NCBI GenBank assembly: GCA_017477505.1
Contig: JAFUVQ010000062.1
Location: 48,370 to 112,369 of the forward strand
DNA from: Eubacterium sp.
GTDB taxonomy: Bacteria > Bacillota > Clostridia > Lachnospirales > Lachnospiraceae
Length of the DNA stretch: 64,000 nucleotides
Direction: 5' to 3'
Part shown: piece by piece, positions 36,267 through 43,413 of the stretch
Position numbering within the stretch: the stretch's first letter is position 1
Layout of the letters: every line of letters starts with the position of its first letter
Program-made: the position numbers and the translations under genes
Notes under the pieces: model-generated
What the model was told of the DNA's origin: nothing
Database searches by the model: none
Seen by the model: only the letters and a program-made list of their open reading frames with translations

Positions 36267-37016
36267 TTATCTGTCTGTCGTTTGTTTTCCACTCATAAGT
36301 TTTCTTCGTTTCTCAACATTTGCAAGCCGTTTACTCACCATAGTCTTCATTCCGATAACATTTGATATCTTCCGCTTTACTCCGACGCCTTCGGAGCTGT
36401 TGCTCTCACTGTAATCACGATACAGTATCAGCTTTTCATCTATGATTCCGACTTTGCCGACCTTTTCAGCTATAAGACCTATCCATTGGTCATGCATCGC
36501 AACGTGAGGCGGAATCGGACAGATGTATCTTATAAGTTCTCTCTTAAATGCCATGCAGCAGCCCTGATAACCATTCTTCAGCAGGTTATGGTTAAAGCCC
36601 TGCTTTACATTTCTATATGAATAAAGATCCCTTCCGGTTCTCTTCAGGTCTTTATCGACAAAATCACAGTTATGAAGAAGAAGTATATCATCAGTCTCTT
36701 CGAAATGCTTTCTTGTGACTTCTGCTTTCTCCGGAAGCCAGATATCATCCTGATCGGAAAGGATTATTATCTCATTCCTGGTATGTCTTATCGCATAATT
36801 AAAGTTCGGGATGATTCCCTTTTTCCTACAGTGAACAAGGCATATCCGGTTATCATCAGCTGCCAGGTCTCTAACGATTTCCTCGGTATTGTCAGTGCTC
36901 TCATTCATAGATATTACCAGCTCATCATCAGCACCGATACTGTTCAGTATACTCCTTATCTGCTCTTCTATATAAAGTTCACCATTGTATGCCGCAAGGG
37001 CAACTGAAATATTCAT
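36267..37016 (-). CDS. Family 2 glycosyltransferase
   Basis: 249-residue GT-A enzyme: NISVALAAYNGELYIEEQIRSIL, then the SDQDDIW motif (metal DxD equivalent), and a C-terminal basic tail. This is the rhamnosyl-transferase-like branch of GT2. The ribosome site is weak. It starts after the Uma2 gene with a 78-base gap and is followed by the GT4 gene. Confidence 0.85.
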   Translation of the reverse strand: MNISVALAAYNGELYIEEQIRSILNSIGADDELVISMNESTDNTEEIVRDLAADDNRICLVHCRKKGIIPNFNYAIRHTRNEIIILSDQDDIWLPEKAEVTRKHFEETDDILLLHNCDFVDKDLKRTGRDLYSYRNVKQGFNHNLLKNGYQGCCMAFKRELIRYICPIPPHVAMHDQWIGLIAEKVGKVGIIDEKLILYRDYSESNSSEGVGVKRKISNVIGMKTMVSKRLANVEKRRKLMSGKQTTDR

Positions 37017-37094: not shown

Positions 37095-37952
37095 TTAAAT
37101 ATTAACATCACGAAGTGTTACAACCAACTTCCCATCATAAATATAAACAGGAATATCATCTTCAAATGAATGTATGGTTGTCTTTTCTTCACCTTCAAAA
37201 ACTGTCTTTATTACAGTTCTCGACTCAGGGTCTGCAATCCAGTATTCCCTTACGCCATCTTCTTTGTATTTCTGTCTTTTTAAATTCAGATCCCTTCTCC
37301 TTGTACTTGGCGAAGTAACCTCCATAACAAAATCTGGCGCTCCCTGGACAGACCTATTATCCGAAAACTTATCCTTATCACACACCACCAAAAAATCCGG
37401 CTGTACGACAGTCATATCACCTTTATCATACTCAAGGCGAACATCTACCGGCGCAAAAAGCACAACACATTTACCTTTATTTTTTTTGATATATGTATAA
37501 AACTGAATATGCATTTCTCCTATGATAAGCTGATGGATAACCGATGGTGCAGAAATCTCGTATATCACCCCATCAATAATTTCTACTCTCGTACCCTCAG
37601 GAAGCTCCAGTTTACAGTAGTCATCATACGTATATCCGCTTTGCGTATATATCTCTCCCGAAAAGCTGCCGTCCTCACTCTTTAAAGCAGAGCTCCCCTT
37701 AGAACAATAATAACCCGTCTCTCTGAAATAATCGTCATCGCCGGAATCATATGCTCTATAGACAAGACCAAGATTCTTATATTTGTCAAAGAACTTAGAA
37801 AGTGCCTCTATAGTATTCTTTCTGGGATTCTTGTTTATCCCACCGAGAACCTTCTGCACCGTACTGATCGGAACCTCTGATTCCTGACTTATGTATTCAT
37901 ACGAAAGCCCATACTTTTTCTTTAAACTGATCATCTCTTCAACTGTACACAT
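37095..37952 (-). CDS. HTH-Uma2 fusion protein
   Basis: 285 residues in two domains. Residues 1-60 form an XRE-type helix-turn-helix (MISLKKKYGLSYEYISQESEVPISTVQKVLGG). Residues ~100-270 are a Uma2 (DUF820) PD-(D/E)XK-like domain, with GVIYEISAPSVIHQLI, PVDVRLEY, VQPDFLVVC and EVTSPSTRRRDLNLKRQKY. The Asp...Glu-x-Thr and lysine pattern of the nuclease core is intact. GGAG stands seven bases before the ATG at 37952; a start at 37988 is rejected. It has a strong promoter with two direct repeats behind it, so it is probably self-regulated. Whether the nuclease fold cuts DNA is unknown. Confidence 0.85.
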   Translation of the reverse strand: MCTVEEMISLKKKYGLSYEYISQESEVPISTVQKVLGGINKNPRKNTIEALSKFFDKYKNLGLVYRAYDSGDDDYFRETGYYCSKGSSALKSEDGSFSGEIYTQSGYTYDDYCKLELPEGTRVEIIDGVIYEISAPSVIHQLIIGEMHIQFYTYIKKNKGKCVVLFAPVDVRLEYDKGDMTVVQPDFLVVCDKDKFSDNRSVQGAPDFVMEVTSPSTRRRDLNLKRQKYKEDGVREYWIADPESRTVIKTVFEGEEKTTIHSFEDDIPVYIYDGKLVVTLRDVNI

Positions 37953-37976
37953 GATGATTCTCCTTTCCGGCATCCT

Positions 37977-38009
37977 CAATCTATCCATTTTCTATCCATT
38001 TCATATCAT
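37977..38009. promoter_or_regulatory. Tandem direct repeats downstream of the HTH-Uma2 promoter
   Basis: Two AAATGGATAG-like units and, just before them, two ATGATAT units lie in register about 10-11 bases apart on the minus strand, between the -10 box and the ribosome site. The helical-turn spacing suits binding by the HTH of the downstream protein. Confidence 0.45.
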
Positions 38010-38079: not shown

Positions 38080-39294
38080 TTATTTTATCTCAACACTGAT
38101 ACAGGAAAGCGCCTTTTCACATTTGGTCTCAGCATCATCAGCATCATTGCCTTTTGCTATTACAAATCCTACGCGGTCGTTTGAGCTTCTTATCTCTTTC
38201 GCTGTCTCTCCGACGTCATGAACTATCGTAACGTTAACAATGCCCTCGGAGTTTCTTGCTTCATCCACTCCGTTTATACCGGTTATAACTCCAACATCAT
38301 TTTTAAAATATCTGATTGCCGATCCTTTTTCCTTCTTAGGAGTAATATCTGCTTTCTCTCCAAGTGCAAGATGGATGCAGCACTCCACCATATCAACTCC
38401 CGTAGAAAGCGGTACGAGAAATGTGGTGATGTTGTCTCCTCCAAGTCTGGCACCAAGCTCGACAATCTTCGGGCCATCCTTGGTAATCTTTATCTCAGTA
38501 TGGGACGGTCCCGTAGTAATACCTATAGCCTTGCAGGCTGCCTCTGTCACTCTTCTTATCTCGTCCTGAACATCCTTCGGCAGTCTTGAGGGCTGGGTAT
38601 GCCCCATCTCTACAAAATAAGGAGCCTCGGTAGTAATCTTATCTGTAATCTGAATAACGTGACATTCACCATCAACTGTAAGAGTTTCCACACTTACTTC
38701 AGGTCCTTCCATGCACTCTTCTGCAAGAACAACACCGGATTTAGAGAAACTCTTAGTATATTCGTATGCATCAGAGAGCTTTTCCATATCATTAATATCT
38801 TCTTTTTCCAGAAATGAGATTCCCCTGCTTCCCGAATTATCCGCAGGCTTAACTATGCATCTCATACCTCTTGAAATAATATCATCCACTGATTCTTTAA
38901 ACTCCCCGAAATCATGATTTATATGAAATACGGGAACAGGAACTCCGGCAGCTTTAAGCGCCTCTCTCATGTATGACTTATTGATAGCCTTGAGCGCGGT
39001 ATCCTTCGTCACTCCGGGAAGCCCCATCTTCTCACACACTGAAGCAACTGTCATCATAGGCATATCACTGGCAAGAGTCATAATCCCGTCTATCCTGTGA
39101 CGTAAGGCTGCTTCCATAACCCTTTCGGTATCAATGGTGCTTATAACTTCCTTTACAACCCCCGGCACCTTAAAACCTACAGCATCTGGATCCATATCGA
39201 CAGCTATGGCGGTAAGTCCCATCTCTATACTCTTTTCAATTGCCGGAAGCTGTAATATACTTGCTCCCAGAATCATTATCTTCTTCTTTTCCAT
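38080..39294 (-). CDS. ATP-grasp ligase, amino-acid-ligase-like
   Basis: 404-residue ATP-grasp enzyme. The pre-ATP-grasp fold (MILGASILQLPAIEKS) is followed by the ATP loop CIVKPADNSGSRGISF and the C-terminal metal and substrate block GPSHTEIKITKDGPKIVELGARLGGD. The segment YFVEMGHTQPS resembles the ELGH-xxPA signature of carboxylate-amine ligases that join amino acids. It is the last of four overlapping or near-overlapping genes (dehydratase, aminotransferase, sugar-phosphate transferase, this), three bases after its neighbour. It probably forms an amide on the amino-sugar made by them (inference). A purine-biosynthesis role is unlikely in this setting. Confidence 0.8.
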   Translation of the reverse strand: MEKKKIMILGASILQLPAIEKSIEMGLTAIAVDMDPDAVGFKVPGVVKEVISTIDTERVMEAALRHRIDGIMTLASDMPMMTVASVCEKMGLPGVTKDTALKAINKSYMREALKAAGVPVPVFHINHDFGEFKESVDDIISRGMRCIVKPADNSGSRGISFLEKEDINDMEKLSDAYEYTKSFSKSGVVLAEECMEGPEVSVETLTVDGECHVIQITDKITTEAPYFVEMGHTQPSRLPKDVQDEIRRVTEAACKAIGITTGPSHTEIKITKDGPKIVELGARLGGDNITTFLVPLSTGVDMVECCIHLALGEKADITPKKEKGSAIRYFKNDVGVITGINGVDEARNSEGIVNVTIVHDVGETAKEIRSSNDRVGFVIAKGNDADDAETKCEKALSCISVEIK

Positions 39295-39297
39295 CAG

Positions 39298-39918
39298 TCA
39301 GTCTTTCTTTTCTTCACCGGAACGGTATACATTTTCATGCGAAAGCACTGTCTTTACAGTCATCATTATGATCTTGATATCAAACAGAAGTGACATATGC
39401 TTCACGTAATAAAGATCATTCTTCAGTTTCTCATGTGCCGTAACAGAATTCCTGTTAACAGCCTGATTGTATCCGGTTATACCCGGCCGAACCAGAAGTA
39501 TCTTCCTCTCTTCTTTTGAATAAGTATAGATATCATCAGGAAGATCGGGTCGGGGTCCGACAAATGCCATCTCCCCCTTCAGTATATTGAGAAGCTGTGG
39601 CAGTTCATCTATACTGGTCTTTCTGGCAAAACGTCCAAACCTTGTAACACGTGGATCATCCTCTGCATTATAAGTGGAGCCATCCGCAAGTCTTATATCG
39701 GGTGCATTAACCTTCATACTTCTCAGCTTGTACATCCTGAAGACTTTGCCATGCCTCCCCAGCCTTTCGCCCATATAAAAAACCGGTCCTCCGTCCTCCA
39801 GCTTAATAAATAAAGCTGAAGGAATAAGCACCAGTATCAGTATCGGAAGTAACATGAGTGCTATAAAAAAGTCTATGATCATTTTGATATTGATATAAAT
39901 CCTTCTCATTTCCTGCAT
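39298..39918 (-). CDS. Initiating sugar-phosphate transferase (PglC/WcaJ-like)
   Basis: 206 residues: one N-terminal membrane helix, then the polyprenol-phosphate hexose-phosphotransferase domain with LGRHGKVFRMYKLRSM, RVTRFGRFARKTSIDELPQ and MAFVGPRPD. It moves a sugar phosphate from a UDP-sugar to undecaprenyl phosphate, starting a glycan on the membrane. The short single-domain form is the PglC type, which prefers di-N-acetylbacillosamine-like sugars. It overlaps the aminotransferase gene by 13 bases. Confidence 0.9.
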   Translation of the reverse strand: MQEMRRIYINIKMIIDFFIALMLLPILILVLIPSALFIKLEDGGPVFYMGERLGRHGKVFRMYKLRSMKVNAPDIRLADGSTYNAEDDPRVTRFGRFARKTSIDELPQLLNILKGEMAFVGPRPDLPDDIYTYSKEERKILLVRPGITGYNQAVNRNSVTAHEKLKNDLYYVKHMSLLFDIKIIMMTVKTVLSHENVYRSGEEKKD

Positions 39919-41213
39919 TCCTCTATGATATTTCCAAAATGATAAATGATATAATCCACATCCTCATCTGTAAGTCTGGTATGGAGCGGCAGTGTTATCT
40001 CTTTCTCATAATGATTATAAGCATTCGGATAATCCTTAATATCAAACCCAAGTTTTCGGTATGCCGTCATCATGGGAAGCGGCTTGTAATGAACATTGCA
40101 GGCAATGCCGCGCTCAGCCATCCTTGTTATTATCTCTCTCCGCAGCATATCATCTGCCCATGGTATGAAAGTAAGATACAGGTGTCCCGAGCTTTCATAT
40201 TCATCAGTGAAATGAACAAGGTGATCAATACCCAGTCTCTCACACATCTCATCATAACGTCCGATTATGGCTTTACGCCTTTTCAGCATTTCAGGATATC
40301 TCTTAAACTGCACCAGCCCCATGGCAGCTGCCACATCAGTCATATTTGATTTATAATACGGTCCGAGGATATCATACTCCCATGCTCCGAGCTTTGTCTT
40401 AGCAAGAGCATCCTTGCTCTGTCCATGAAGACTCAGCAGCTGATAGACTTTATATATATCATCATTATCAATACCGGGAATATCACGCCATGCGGCGGCT
40501 CCGCCTTCAGCAGTGGTAAAATTCTTTACGGCATGAAATGAAAATGAAGTAAAATCCGCTATAGCTCCCGCCATCTTCCTATCCGGTTCCGCTGAGCCAT
40601 CATTCTTAATGAAACGTGAGGCTCCCAGAGCATGTGCGCTGTCACTGAGAACGGCAACCCTGCCTATACTCTCACTAACCGACTCCGTAAGCTTCTCAAT
40701 AGGATTCTTTTCAGAATCCCGATCTGCTGTTAATGCCGGCACAAAGAGAGATTTCTTCTCACTGACTACATCAAAAAGCTTTCTATAATCAGGAATGACC
40801 CCGCCGAGATCCACCGCCACTACAGCTTTAGTCTTCTCATTGATAAGAGAGGCAACCGAATCCATATCCATAAGGGGACCGTCTTTCTCTGAGTCCGCAA
40901 AGCGTATCGTCGCCCCGACATGAACCGCAGCCGATGCTGTGGCCGTATAGGTATATGCAGGAACTATCACTTCATCCCCGGGACCGATTCCAAGGACTCT
41001 GAGGTTAAGTTCCTCTGCTGCTGTTGCAGATGAAAGACATACCGTCTTCTCCACGCCTATATATCCTGCGAGCTTCTTCTCAAGCTCCTTTGTTCTGGGT
41101 CCTGTAGTTATCCAGCCTGATTTAAGGGCTTTCACTACTTCTTCACATTCCTCATCCGTAATATCCGGAGGGCTGAAGCTTATATTTCTTTTATCATTTA
41201 TATCACTACTCAT
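39906..41213 (-). CDS. DegT/DnrJ/EryC1-type sugar aminotransferase
   Basis: PLP-dependent aminotransferase of UDP-4-keto-6-deoxysugars, PglE-like. The PLP Lys is in FSFHAVKNFTTAEGG, and the conserved VAVDLGG and LSDSAHALG segments are present. The central region carries an insert (EKKSLFVPALTADRDSEKNPIEKLTES) longer than in PglE. The ATG at 41213 overlaps the dehydratase stop by 8 bases; a GTG at 41237 would overlap it further, and neither ribosome site is strong, so the start is uncertain by eight codons. The product should be a UDP-4-amino-sugar. Confidence 0.9.
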   Translation of the reverse strand: MSSDINDKRNISFSPPDITDEECEEVVKALKSGWITTGPRTKELEKKLAGYIGVEKTVCLSSATAAEELNLRVLGIGPGDEVIVPAYTYTATASAAVHVGATIRFADSEKDGPLMDMDSVASLINEKTKAVVAVDLGGVIPDYRKLFDVVSEKKSLFVPALTADRDSEKNPIEKLTESVSESIGRVAVLSDSAHALGASRFIKNDGSAEPDRKMAGAIADFTSFSFHAVKNFTTAEGGAAAWRDIPGIDNDDIYKVYQLLSLHGQSKDALAKTKLGAWEYDILGPYYKSNMTDVAAAMGLVQFKRYPEMLKRRKAIIGRYDEMCERLGIDHLVHFTDEYESSGHLYLTFIPWADDMLRREIITRMAERGIACNVHYKPLPMMTAYRKLGFDIKDYPNAYNHYEKEITLPLHTRLTDEDVDYIIYHFGNIIEECRK

Positions 41214-43413
41214 AATCTGTCTTTTCAGTCTTCTCACTTAATAACTTTTCCATTTCCTGCTCTTCTTCCTCAGTCTCCTCAATGACCCTGTCGATAATTA
41301 TCCGGCTCTTCGCAGACTTCTCAAGAAGCACATTAAGAATCTCTCTATATTCCGCATCTTTACTTGTATCTTTATCATACGGATTATAAGTACTTACCAT
41401 ATCCTGTACCATCAGTCTGATACCGTCGAAATTCTTATAAGCGATTTCCATAAGGTCTTCCATGGAATCAAGGAATTCATCAGTATCAAACTCAACCGGA
41501 TGCCCTATATGAATAAGCTTATTTCTGGTCTTCTCAAGTCCTTCTTCCGCCATAAGCTTTTCTTCAAAAAGCTTCTCACCCGGACGAAGTCCTGTATATT
41601 CGATGGCTATATCCACGTCAGGCTCATAACCGCAGAGCTTGATAAGATTTCGGGCAAGGTCGTCAATCTTGACAGGTTCACCCATATCAAGTACAAAAAT
41701 CTCGCTGCCCTTTGCATAAGTACCTGCCTGAAGCACCAGCTGTGCAGCCTCAGGAATAGTCATGAAATATCTGATTATATCAGGATGAGTAACCATAACC
41801 GGTCCTCCGTCAGCAATCTGCTCCTTGAAAAGAGGAATAACAGAACCGCTGCTGCCGAGAACATTTCCGAATCTTACGGCAACGAATTCAGTCTGAGCCT
41901 TAATATGACCTGCCATATCCTGTCCCGGAATAGTGAAAAGCGGCTTGCCTTCCTTGTCAACTCTTATGGAATCAGGACCCACAGGATACATGCTTTCTTC
42001 CTCATCTTCAAGATGCACGTGGAGCACAGGAATCTCTGACTCTCTGTTCTCTTTGATCTTCTTGTCAAAGGACTGGATTATCATCTCACATATTCTCTTG
42101 CTGGCTCCCATGATATTCGTAGGATTAACAGCCTTGTCGGTACTGATAAGAACAAATCTCTGGGTTCCGTACATCATGGCAGCATAAGCAACCTTATATG
42201 TACCGATTGCGTTATTCTTAATAGCCTCACACGGACTGACCTCCATTAGAGGTACATGCTTATGTGCTGCCGCATGATAAACCACATCCGGTCTGTAGGT
42301 TCTGAATATCTGATTAACCCTTCGGCTGTCTCTTACTGAACCTATCATAACCTTAAGATCAAGTTTCGGATGCTGTCTTGTAAGTTCATTCATGATATTA
42401 TAAGCATTATTTTCATATATATCAAAAATGATAAGCTGCTTGGGACTGTGCTTAGCTATCTGACGGCAGAGTTCTGAACCTATGGAGCCGCCTCCGCCCG
42501 TAACCAGTATAGTCTTACCCGAAATAAAATCATATATCTCAGTCATATCAACCTTGATAGGGTCTCTGCCGAGAAGGTCCTCAATGGCTATCTCCTGCAT
42601 GGCTGACATATTTACTTCGCCGTTAACCAGCTGATAAACTCCCGGAAGACTCTTCATCTTGCATCCGGTTTCCTTACAGATATTGAGGATATCTCTCTTA
42701 TCCTCAAGCTTTGCCGTAGGAATTGCGAGATATATCTTCTCTATGCTGTATTTCTCACAGGCAAGAAGGATATCATCACGTCCTCCGACTACCGGAACGC
42801 CATCAACCAGCTTATTCCATTTGCTTGAATCATCATCGATCATACATACCGGTCTGTCCTCAAGTTCATTGGAGCTGTTCAGCTCGCGTACTATGATACG
42901 CCCTGCATTTCCCGCTCCTATGACCATGACCCTGCAGTATTTTGCATTATTCTTCTTGCTCTGAGCCCGCAGCAGCACCACAAACCTGTTAAGGAATCTC
43001 AGAGCCAGTACGAGGAAGAACTGCAGCATGGAGCCCATGAAATAATATGAAATAGGCATTCTCTGGAAGAATACCGTTATTGCAACTATATGGATAACAC
43101 TGGTAACAAGAGTTGCATAGATAACCCGCTCAAGTTCCACAAAGCTGGCAAATTTCCAGATACTTCTGTAGAGTCCGAAGAACCAGAAACATGCAAGACA
43201 TATTACTGTATAAAACGGAGCGAATTTGTAGAATGGAGTAAGATACATCTCCTCAATAGCTGATACACGGCAGTCAAATCTGAACCAGAGTGCAGCAAAA
43301 TAAGATATGTTTACAAAAAACATATCTAAAACCATGAAAACTATGTTTACAAACTGACTATGTTCAGCCAGACCGCTTTTTTTCGGAGAGTGTCCGGTTT
43401 TATCACTGTTCAT
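41206..43413 (-). CDS. Membrane UDP-sugar 4,6-dehydratase (CapD/PglF-like)
   Basis: 735 residues: four membrane helices (to ~150), a CoA/NAD-binding module (VMVIGAGNAGRIIV), then the extended short-chain dehydrogenase domain starting VTGGGGSIGSELCRQI, with STDKAVNPTNIMGASKR. Family members convert UDP-GlcNAc to UDP-4-keto-6-deoxy-GlcNAc. As in PglF relatives, the catalytic Tyr is replaced in the STDKAVNPTN loop. It has a charged Glu-rich C-terminus. It starts the dehydratase, aminotransferase, sugar-phosphate transferase, ATP-grasp series. Confidence 0.93.
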   Translation of the reverse strand: MNSDKTGHSPKKSGLAEHSQFVNIVFMVLDMFFVNISYFAALWFRFDCRVSAIEEMYLTPFYKFAPFYTVICLACFWFFGLYRSIWKFASFVELERVIYATLVTSVIHIVAITVFFQRMPISYYFMGSMLQFFLVLALRFLNRFVVLLRAQSKKNNAKYCRVMVIGAGNAGRIIVRELNSSNELEDRPVCMIDDDSSKWNKLVDGVPVVGGRDDILLACEKYSIEKIYLAIPTAKLEDKRDILNICKETGCKMKSLPGVYQLVNGEVNMSAMQEIAIEDLLGRDPIKVDMTEIYDFISGKTILVTGGGGSIGSELCRQIAKHSPKQLIIFDIYENNAYNIMNELTRQHPKLDLKVMIGSVRDSRRVNQIFRTYRPDVVYHAAAHKHVPLMEVSPCEAIKNNAIGTYKVAYAAMMYGTQRFVLISTDKAVNPTNIMGASKRICEMIIQSFDKKIKENRESEIPVLHVHLEDEEESMYPVGPDSIRVDKEGKPLFTIPGQDMAGHIKAQTEFVAVRFGNVLGSSGSVIPLFKEQIADGGPVMVTHPDIIRYFMTIPEAAQLVLQAGTYAKGSEIFVLDMGEPVKIDDLARNLIKLCGYEPDVDIAIEYTGLRPGEKLFEEKLMAEEGLEKTRNKLIHIGHPVEFDTDEFLDSMEDLMEIAYKNFDGIRLMVQDMVSTYNPYDKDTSKDAEYREILNVLLEKSAKSRIIIDRVIEETEEEEQEMEKLLSEKTEKTDYE

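What the first reader, a model, noticed from the sequence alone, without database searches (positions are those of the whole stretch)
38080..43413. Four-gene set predicting an aminoacylated 4-amino-sugar on a lipid carrier
A CapD/PglF-like dehydratase, a PglE-like aminotransferase, a PglC-like phosphosugar transferase and an ATP-grasp protein overlap or lie within three bases of each other. In the known bacillosamine route the third modifying enzyme is the acetyltransferase PglD; here there is none, and an ATP-grasp protein with amino-acid-ligase-like blocks (YFVEMGHTQPS, GPSHTEI) takes its place. This suggests that an amino acid or other carboxylate, not acetate, is joined to the 4-amino group. 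Domains and overlaps are seen; the chemistry is inferred.
Basis: partly seen in the sequence, partly recalled or inferred. Interest (0 to 1): 0.72.

Follow-up and report, generated by a model that had tools for sequence, protein, structure and literature searches.

The report
Probable amino-acid-capping set for surface sugars
Four neighbouring genes in a gut- or rumen-type bacterium probably make an unusual amino sugar, attach an amino acid (or similar acid) to it and load it on a membrane lipid to start a surface glycan; close relatives of the set recur in several bacterial phyla, but the chemistry is inferred and has partial precedents.

Summary
The four genes are real and tightly packed: dehydratase, aminotransferase (AT), phosphosugar transferase (PGT), ATP-grasp (overlaps 32 and 13 bases, gap 3). 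The ATP-grasp has the L-amino-acid-ligase fold and conserved catalytic residues. Among the 80 best relatives kept, 73 lie within four genes of the same PGT type and 62 near the same AT; more distant relatives lose this link.
(2) The ATP-grasp does not simply replace PglD: in an AT-centred sample one PGT clade usually has an N-acylator, GNAT or ATP-grasp (8 of 9), the other usually none (5 of 24); 24 of 71 ATP-grasp modules also carry an acetyltransferase. The window's genome has no PglD- or PseH-family match over cut-off.
Best reading (0.6): the ATP-grasp acylates the sugar's 4-amine, probably with an amino acid, before lipid loading. Precedents: Neisseria PglB2, C. difficile Fuc3N-peptide. 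New variant of a known kind.

The parts
41206..43413 (-). Membrane-anchored UDP-GlcNAc 4,6-dehydratase (PglF/CapD type), predicted to make the UDP-4-keto-6-deoxy sugar
   Evidence: Pfam Polysacc_synt_2 and CoA_binding_3; best solved relative C. jejuni WlaL 5bju, E 1.8e-83 (that WlaL is PglF, and of C. jejuni, is recalled)
39906..41237 (-). PLP aminotransferase of Spr1654 type, predicted to make UDP-2-acetamido-4-amino-2,4,6-trideoxygalactose (AATGal/FucNAc4N); an in-frame ATG eight codons downstream would start at 41213
   Evidence: Pfam DegT; 6ewj E 2.8e-136 over residues 17-439 (that 6ewj is Spr1654 is recalled)
39298..39918 (-). Small monotopic phosphoglycosyl transferase (PglC type), member of the clade that mostly goes with N-acylating genes
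   Evidence: Pfam Bac_transf; nearest solved 8g1n, N,N'-diacetylbacillosaminyl-1-phosphate transferase, E 2.7e-38; tree; D104-E105 invariant in 11 rows (that this is the catalytic dyad is recalled)
38080..39294 (-). ATP-grasp ligase of L-amino-acid-ligase type, predicted to acylate the sugar's 4-amine
36267..37016 (-). GT2 glycosyltransferase, probable next step on the lipid-linked sugar
   Evidence: Pfam Glycos_transf_2; kept beside the set in L028 and L029
34997..36238 (-). GT4-type glycosyltransferase
   Evidence: Pfam Glyco_trans_1_4; kept in L028 and L029
34006..34923 (-). dTDP-4-dehydrorhamnose reductase (RmlD)
   Evidence: NCBIfam rmlD 303.9 bits, cut-off 224.05; kept in L028 and L029
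37095..37988 (-). Uma2-domain protein, probably an insertion and not part of the pathway
   Evidence: Pfam Uma2; present in L028, absent at this place in L029, where the ATP-grasp gene is followed by GT2

Best explanation
The set makes the first sugar of a lipid-linked glycan and caps its 4-amine. UDP-GlcNAc is dehydrated to the 4-keto-6-deoxy sugar; the Spr1654-type aminotransferase adds a 4-amine, giving UDP-AATGal (UDP-FucNAc4N); the amino-acid-ligase-type ATP-grasp activates a carboxylic acid, most likely an amino acid, as an acyl phosphate and joins it to that amine; the PGT then moves the acylated phosphosugar to undecaprenyl phosphate, and the two neighbouring glycosyltransferases extend it. 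Shown: genes, order, families, fold (predicted), conserved catalytic residues, cross-phylum linkage of close relatives, and the link between PGT clade and acylators. Inferred: sugar stereochemistry, the donor acid, the acceptor, and that acylation comes before the PGT step.
Against: 24 of 71 modules also carry a GNAT or hexapeptide-type acetyltransferase, and in L171, L189, L195 and L177 (GNAT plus ATP-grasp) the PGT groups with GNAT-only PGTs, so there the GNAT may acylate the 4-amine and the ATP-grasp act elsewhere. The link fades outside the closest relatives: of 20 class loci read for the ATP-grasp profile (of 24 places besides the window), only L063, L072 and L074 have a clade-X PGT beside it; L064 (48% identity), L065 (43%, short contig) and L066 (38%) show no PGT in the held stretch, and distant ATP-grasp relatives (28-33%) sit near PGTs of other types in L031, L033 and L067. 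One clade-X PGT (L117) shows no acylator among eight of its twelve held neighbours scanned by Pfam or by the models. In five relatives at pseudaminic-acid-type loci a PseH-like protein exists in the same genome, in four on the same contig. No enzymatic data; the fold does not tell the acceptor, and known L-amino acid ligases join free amino acids (recalled). The GNAT and hexapeptide models were built from proteins of these same loci.
Confidence: 0.6

Rival explanations
1. The acid is not an amino acid but a hydroxy acid such as glycerate, as in Neisseria PglB2; the rest of the scheme is unchanged.
For: PglB2 shares PglB's pathway but is proposed to make a 4-glyceramido sugar (PMC6959607 passages). 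The fold cannot tell amino from hydroxy acid.
Against: The solved relatives with an amino acid activity in their titles are L-amino acid ligases; the BacD Glu/His pair is kept (its role at the amino acid is recalled); GNATs fused to or beside the ATP-grasp would fit acetylation of an amino acid's amine.
Confidence: 0.2
2. The 4-amine stays free (AATGal as proposed for pneumococcal teichoic acid; that it is free there is recalled) and the ATP-grasp acts on another sugar, on free amino acids or on the finished glycan.
For: The AT is closest to Spr1654; 19 of 24 AT loci with the other PGT clade show no acylator, a group of them with GT2 and LicD neighbours (by cluster and Pfam of one representative each). 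Some ATP-grasp relatives lie without the PGT.
Against: The window's PGT belongs to the clade that has an acylator in 8 of 9 loci; in the 80 loci no neighbour cluster is more constant than PGT (72 loci) and AT (64 loci), the next being a GT4 cluster (36 loci).
Confidence: 0.15
3. The ATP-grasp acylates the sugar after the PGT step, on the undecaprenyl-linked form.
For: The ATP-grasp gene usually follows the PGT gene (of 73 clustered PGTs, 39 lie at -1 and 25 at -2).
Against: In the classical route acetylation precedes the PGT (PMC6959607 passages); PGT clades track the acylator, as expected if the PGT sees the acyl group.
Confidence: 0.15

Closest known systems
Neisseria PglB/PglB2 (diNAcBac and GATDH synthesis; PMC6959607, passages seen)
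   Same: A PGT paired with alternative N-acylating domains; PglB2's distinct C-terminal domain is proposed to put a glyceryl group where PglB puts acetyl
   Different: There the domains are fused to the PGT and the sugar is gluco-configured; here the ATP-grasp is a separate gene, the AT is of Spr1654 type, and an amino acid is predicted. That PglB2's extra domain is an ATP-grasp is recalled; I could not compare the sequences.
Pneumococcal teichoic acid AATGal route (Spr0092, Spr1654; PMC5936713, abstract, outline and section 2.5 seen)
   Same: Membrane dehydratase and the closest solved aminotransferase
   Different: No ATP-grasp appears in the parts I read; the place of the pneumococcal PGT in my tree was not tested
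C. difficile type B flagellin peptidylamido-glycan (PMC5207245, PMC5207246, passages seen)
   Same: An amino sugar (Fuc3N) acylated by a peptide in a Gram-positive, with an ATP-grasp (Pfam 13535) gene, CDR20291_0245, in the locus
   Different: A 3-amino sugar at the glycan's outer end; a FemAB-like gene is the authors' candidate for acylating the sugar
L-amino acid ligases (BL00235, BacD/YwfE, RizA)
   Same: Fold, LAL_C2 domain, catalytic residues
   Different: Those join two free amino acids (recalled); gene context here points to an amino-sugar acceptor
C. jejuni PglF-PglE-PglD-PglC bacillosamine route (recalled)
   Same: Dehydratase and PGT closest to WlaL and a PglC-type enzyme among solved structures
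   Different: AT far from 1o61 (E 5.4e-8; that 1o61 is PglE is recalled), and no PglD in the set

Membership tests
L-amino-acid-ligase-type ATP-grasp | ATP-grasp domain plus LAL C-terminal domain above the Pfam cut-offs | tested here: met
   ATP-grasp_4 77.9 bits (cut-off 27), LAL_C2 68.2 bits (cut-off 29.4)
L-amino-acid-ligase-type ATP-grasp | Fold and metal/phosphate residues of solved ligases | tested here: met
L-amino-acid-ligase-type ATP-grasp | Joins two free amino acids | not testable with these tools
   Needs an assay
Bacillosamine (Pgl) route | PglF-type 4,6-dehydratase | tested here: met
   WlaL 5bju E 1.8e-83
Bacillosamine (Pgl) route | Aminotransferase closer to PglE than to other solved types | tested here: not met
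   6ewj (Spr1654) E 2.8e-136 against 1o61 (PglE by recall) E 5.4e-8
Bacillosamine (Pgl) route | PglD acetyltransferase in the genome | tested here: not met
   No NeuD/PglD-family match over the cut-off in the window's genome, 96.95% complete; a divergent enzyme is not excluded
AATGal (Spr1654) route | Aminotransferase of Spr1654 type, with its insertion | tested here: met
   Alignment of residues 17-439 including the insertion region (insertions described in PMC5936713 section 2.5)
AATGal (Spr1654) route | Product is galacto-configured AATGal | not testable with these tools
   Even for Spr1654 the product is predicted (PMC5936713 abstract and section 2.5)
Neisseria PglB2-like N-acyl swap | PGT tied to an ATP-grasp acylating domain in place of an acetyltransferase | tested here: inconclusive
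   Association and partial swap shown; 24 of 71 modules also hold an acetyltransferase; homology to PglB2's domain not tested

The most novel reading that the evidence does not exclude
A dedicated PGT clade found in Bacillota and Bacteroidota (and on contigs labelled Fibrobacter, Planctomycetales/Thermoguttaceae and Adlercreutzia) takes 4-N-acylated AATGal as the first glycan sugar, with an acyl slot filled by GNAT or by amino-acid-ligase-type enzymes, sometimes together; the ATP-grasp branch would be the first broad class of L-amino acid ligases whose acceptor is a nucleotide sugar, giving many gut and rumen bacteria an aminoacylated first sugar.
Probability: 0.42. Interest if true: 0.66.

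Novelty: new variant of a known kind. Interest (0 to 1): 0.5.

Why it matters
The first sugar on the lipid carrier decides which PGT and glycosyltransferases can work and is part of what hosts and phages meet. If right, a common ATP-grasp gene in capsule and glycosylation loci, annotated only by its domain in the two plasmid records that I opened, gets a substrate class; glycan structures become more predictable from gene sets (free amine, acetyl or aminoacyl); and a simple purified-enzyme test follows. It would also extend the acyl swap described for Neisseria PglB/PglB2 to a much wider range of bacteria.

Tried and rejected
Rejected: 'the ATP-grasp replaces PseH in pseudaminic acid loci'. 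Five relatives (L203, L205, L206, L208, L210) have no PGT module; L210 shows PseB-PseC-PseF-PseI-PseG-like-ATP-grasp with no PseH between (the other four were tested for one gene at most, or placed by clustering). The idea was dropped.

Rejected: 'PglD always missing'. Hexapeptide-type or GNAT acetyltransferases lie near in 24 of 71 modules; L161 and L172 hold NeuD/PglD-family proteins just under the cut-off (158.9 and 153.2 bits against 160.8). One search gave 20 of 80 with a cruder pattern that missed two hexapeptide proteins seen by Pfam (L135, L138); one search supersedes it.

Set aside: uronic-acid amidation (sugar acid plus amino acid amine), because the usual partner is an aminotransferase. 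A phage origin: no match among phage records at E 1e-20.

Led nowhere: ten literature searches listed no paper that I recognised as being on this gene set; I saw listings, not whole texts, and the library is open-access only.
Full report
What is there. On the minus strand four genes run 43413-38080: dehydratase, aminotransferase (AT), phosphoglycosyl transferase (PGT), ATP-grasp, with overlaps of 32 and 13 bases and a gap of 3. Pfam gives Polysacc_synt_2/CoA_binding_3, DegT, Bac_transf, and ATP-grasp_4 plus LAL_C2. Downstream lie a Uma2 gene, a GT2, a GT4-type transferase and RmlD; a diacylglycerol-kinase-type gene (my reading, not searched) ends 45 bases upstream. Terminator-like sites are no commoner than in shuffles (7 against 6.3). 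Two sister species keep the whole block between the same neighbours (L028, L029; the AT of L029, hidden by my ORF picker, is open by tblastn).

The sugar. Among solved structures the dehydratase is nearest to WlaL (E 1.8e-83) and the PGT to N,N'-diacetylbacillosaminyl-1-phosphate transferase 8g1n (E 2.7e-38). The AT is different: its best solved relative is 6ewj, E 2.8e-136 over residues 17-439, against 5.4e-8 for 1o61, which I recall as C. jejuni PglE. I identify 6ewj as Spr1654 of Streptococcus pneumoniae from recall; PMC5936713 describes Spr1654 as predicted to make AATGal, with glutamate as likely amino donor, and the authors could not detect products of the preceding dehydratase (abstract, outline and section 2.5 seen). 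So the sugar is more likely AATGal (FucNAc4N) than bacillosamine.

How common. A pattern scan of genome contigs confirmed 278 relatives, of which the best 80 were kept, so what follows holds for close relatives only (46% identity or more in that table). Titles are mostly Bacillota and Bacteroidota, with one Fibrobacter, two Planctomycetota-type and one Adlercreutzia contig. In these 80, a PGT at least 46% identical to the window's lies within four genes on the same strand in 73, adjacent in 47 and two genes off in 24; an AT of at least 46% lies within four genes in 62; a dehydratase longer than 450 aa is seen anywhere in the held stretch in 31. Of the 7 without the PGT, 5 are pseudaminic-acid-type loci and 2 (L204, L212) have the AT but no PGT by my labels. 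Two annotated plasmids show the module: a capsule-type cluster of Enterococcus hirae (dehydratase-AT-oxidoreductase-PGT-ATP-grasp-GT-GT-polymerase-acyltransferase-flippase) and a Parabacteroides distasonis cluster (ATP-grasp-PGT-ATP-grasp-AT). In 391 class genomes the ATP-grasp profile reached 1e-40 in 23, the own one included. There the link is weaker: of the 20 loci read (of 24 places besides the window), only L063, L072 and L074 have the same PGT type beside the ATP-grasp; L064 (48% identity), L065 (43%, short contig) and L066 (38%) have none in the held stretch, and the rest are 27-38% relatives in other settings. Within the genus, L031 pairs a 33% relative with a PGT of another type.

Is it an acylator? 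I searched the same 391 genomes with an AT profile (made from four loci that all hold an ATP-grasp; up to four candidates a genome scored): 53 genomes at E up to 1e-120. I read the neighbourhoods of the 52 besides the window. A PGT lies within four genes in 33. PGT similarity is bimodal: 9 score 186-226 bits against the window's PGT ('clade X'), 24 score 82-123. With hidden Markov models for GNAT, hexapeptide and ATP-grasp genes, 8 of 9 clade-X loci have an acylator within three genes of the PGT (4 GNAT, 3 ATP-grasp, 1 both) and 5 of 24 of the others do (Fisher p 7e-4; rows are related and the GNAT and hexapeptide models came from these loci, so the p-value is indicative; a cruder scan gave 8 of 9 and 4 of 24). 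A group of the other loci has GT2 and LicD genes next (clusters of 11 and 7 proteins, one representative of each scanned), as fits free-amine AATGal. A PGT-centred search (profile from 11 clade-X rows, up to seven candidates a genome scored) found 12 genomes: 11 at E up to 1e-90, with GNAT only 4, ATP-grasp only 4 (window included), both 2, none 1; for the last, L117, eight of twelve held neighbours were scanned by Pfam. The twelfth (E 4e-72, L213) is a PGT beside a gene with Pfam PglD_N and Hexapep domains. A tree of 63 PGTs (the AT-centred ones, every third of the 80 ATP-grasp loci by number, and six others) separates 24 rows from 39 at 100/100; the 39 are clade X plus L213 and L031. Inside the genus the clade-X PGT is in 3 of 61 genomes, the same three that hold an ATP-grasp of 73% identity or more; one search examined 37 genomes of that genus for it. 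The dehydratase is in 21 of 61.

What speaks against a simple swap. Of 71 ATP-grasp loci with an unfused clade-X PGT, 47 have no acetyltransferase detected within three genes of the PGT, 13 a hexapeptide type, 10 a GNAT and 1 both. Nine loci share one GNAT cluster; the member scanned, L169, is PseH-like (81.9 bits, cut-off 93.1), and some such PGTs group with GNAT-only PGTs. Either the GNAT acetylates the amino acid's own amine (N-acetyl-alanyl and N-acetylglycyl substituents on 4-amino sugars are on record: PMC3210612 passages), or the ATP-grasp acts elsewhere in those loci. A GNAT fused to an ATP-grasp of this family (L153) and to another ATP-grasp (L137 by Pfam; L142 by my model) favours a shared pathway. 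In pseudaminic-acid-type loci a PseH-like protein is also present in the genome. The window's own case is the simplest: ATP-grasp only, and no PglD-family (43.1 bits at best, cut-off 160.8) or PseH-family (32.7 bits, cut-off 93.1) match over cut-off in its genome; other GNATs exist there and are not excluded.

Verdict. I put 0.6 on 4-N-acylation of UDP-AATGal by the ATP-grasp before lipid loading, an amino acid being the likeliest donor. Similar chemistry is on record: Neisseria PglB2, proposed to make a 4-glyceramido sugar where PglB makes diNAcBac (PMC6959607 passages), and the C. difficile flagellin glycan, whose Fuc3N carries a taurine-Ala-Gly peptide and whose locus encodes an ATP-grasp protein (PMC5207245 and PMC5207246 passages). 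The finding is therefore a new variant of a known kind. Ten searches of the open library listed no paper that I recognised as being on this gene set.

Noticed in passing
L144:6926-8002, and 13 further loci listed: A ~360-aa family (no Pfam or NCBIfam match for L144's copy) lies near the ATP-grasp in 14 of 80 loci: ten between PGT and ATP-grasp, one fused to the PGT, three near the ATP-grasp at pseudaminic-acid-type loci. A profile places it near ColD/DegT PLP enzymes (E 3e-9); perhaps it supplies or alters the amino acid.
   Followed up: partly
window 37095-37988: A Uma2-domain gene sits between the ATP-grasp gene and GT2 here and in L028 but not in L029; short AT-rich 11-base tandem repeats and a promoter-like site (38039-38011, minus strand) precede it. 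Likely an insertion.
   Followed up: partly
L136, L156, L160, L184, L194, L202, L207 and others: A second, ~430-aa ATP-grasp gene often follows the module (a further ATP-grasp relative within four genes in 20 of 80 loci); it could add a second residue.
   Followed up: no
L153:7488-9209; L142:6333-7988; L163:6311-8065; L204:5250-7367: Fusions: GNAT plus this ATP-grasp; GNAT plus another ATP-grasp; PGT plus the ~360-aa PLP-like protein; what looks like the dehydratase's N-terminal part plus the AT.
   Followed up: partly
L143:6322-7332 and ten other loci: A ~336-aa family between AT and PGT in 11 of 80 loci; L143's copy is an SDR epimerase-like protein. It may change the sugar's configuration.
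   Followed up: no
L203, L205, L206, L208, L210: Relatives of the ATP-grasp (49-51%) lie at pseudaminic-acid-type loci without the PGT, perhaps for an aminoacylated nonulosonic acid.
   Followed up: partly
PDB 4dim (Anaerococcus prevotii): Titled phosphoribosylglycinamide synthetase, yet it is the best profile and fold match to this ATP-grasp family, and several Anaerococcus species carry the module; the title may be wrong.
   Followed up: no
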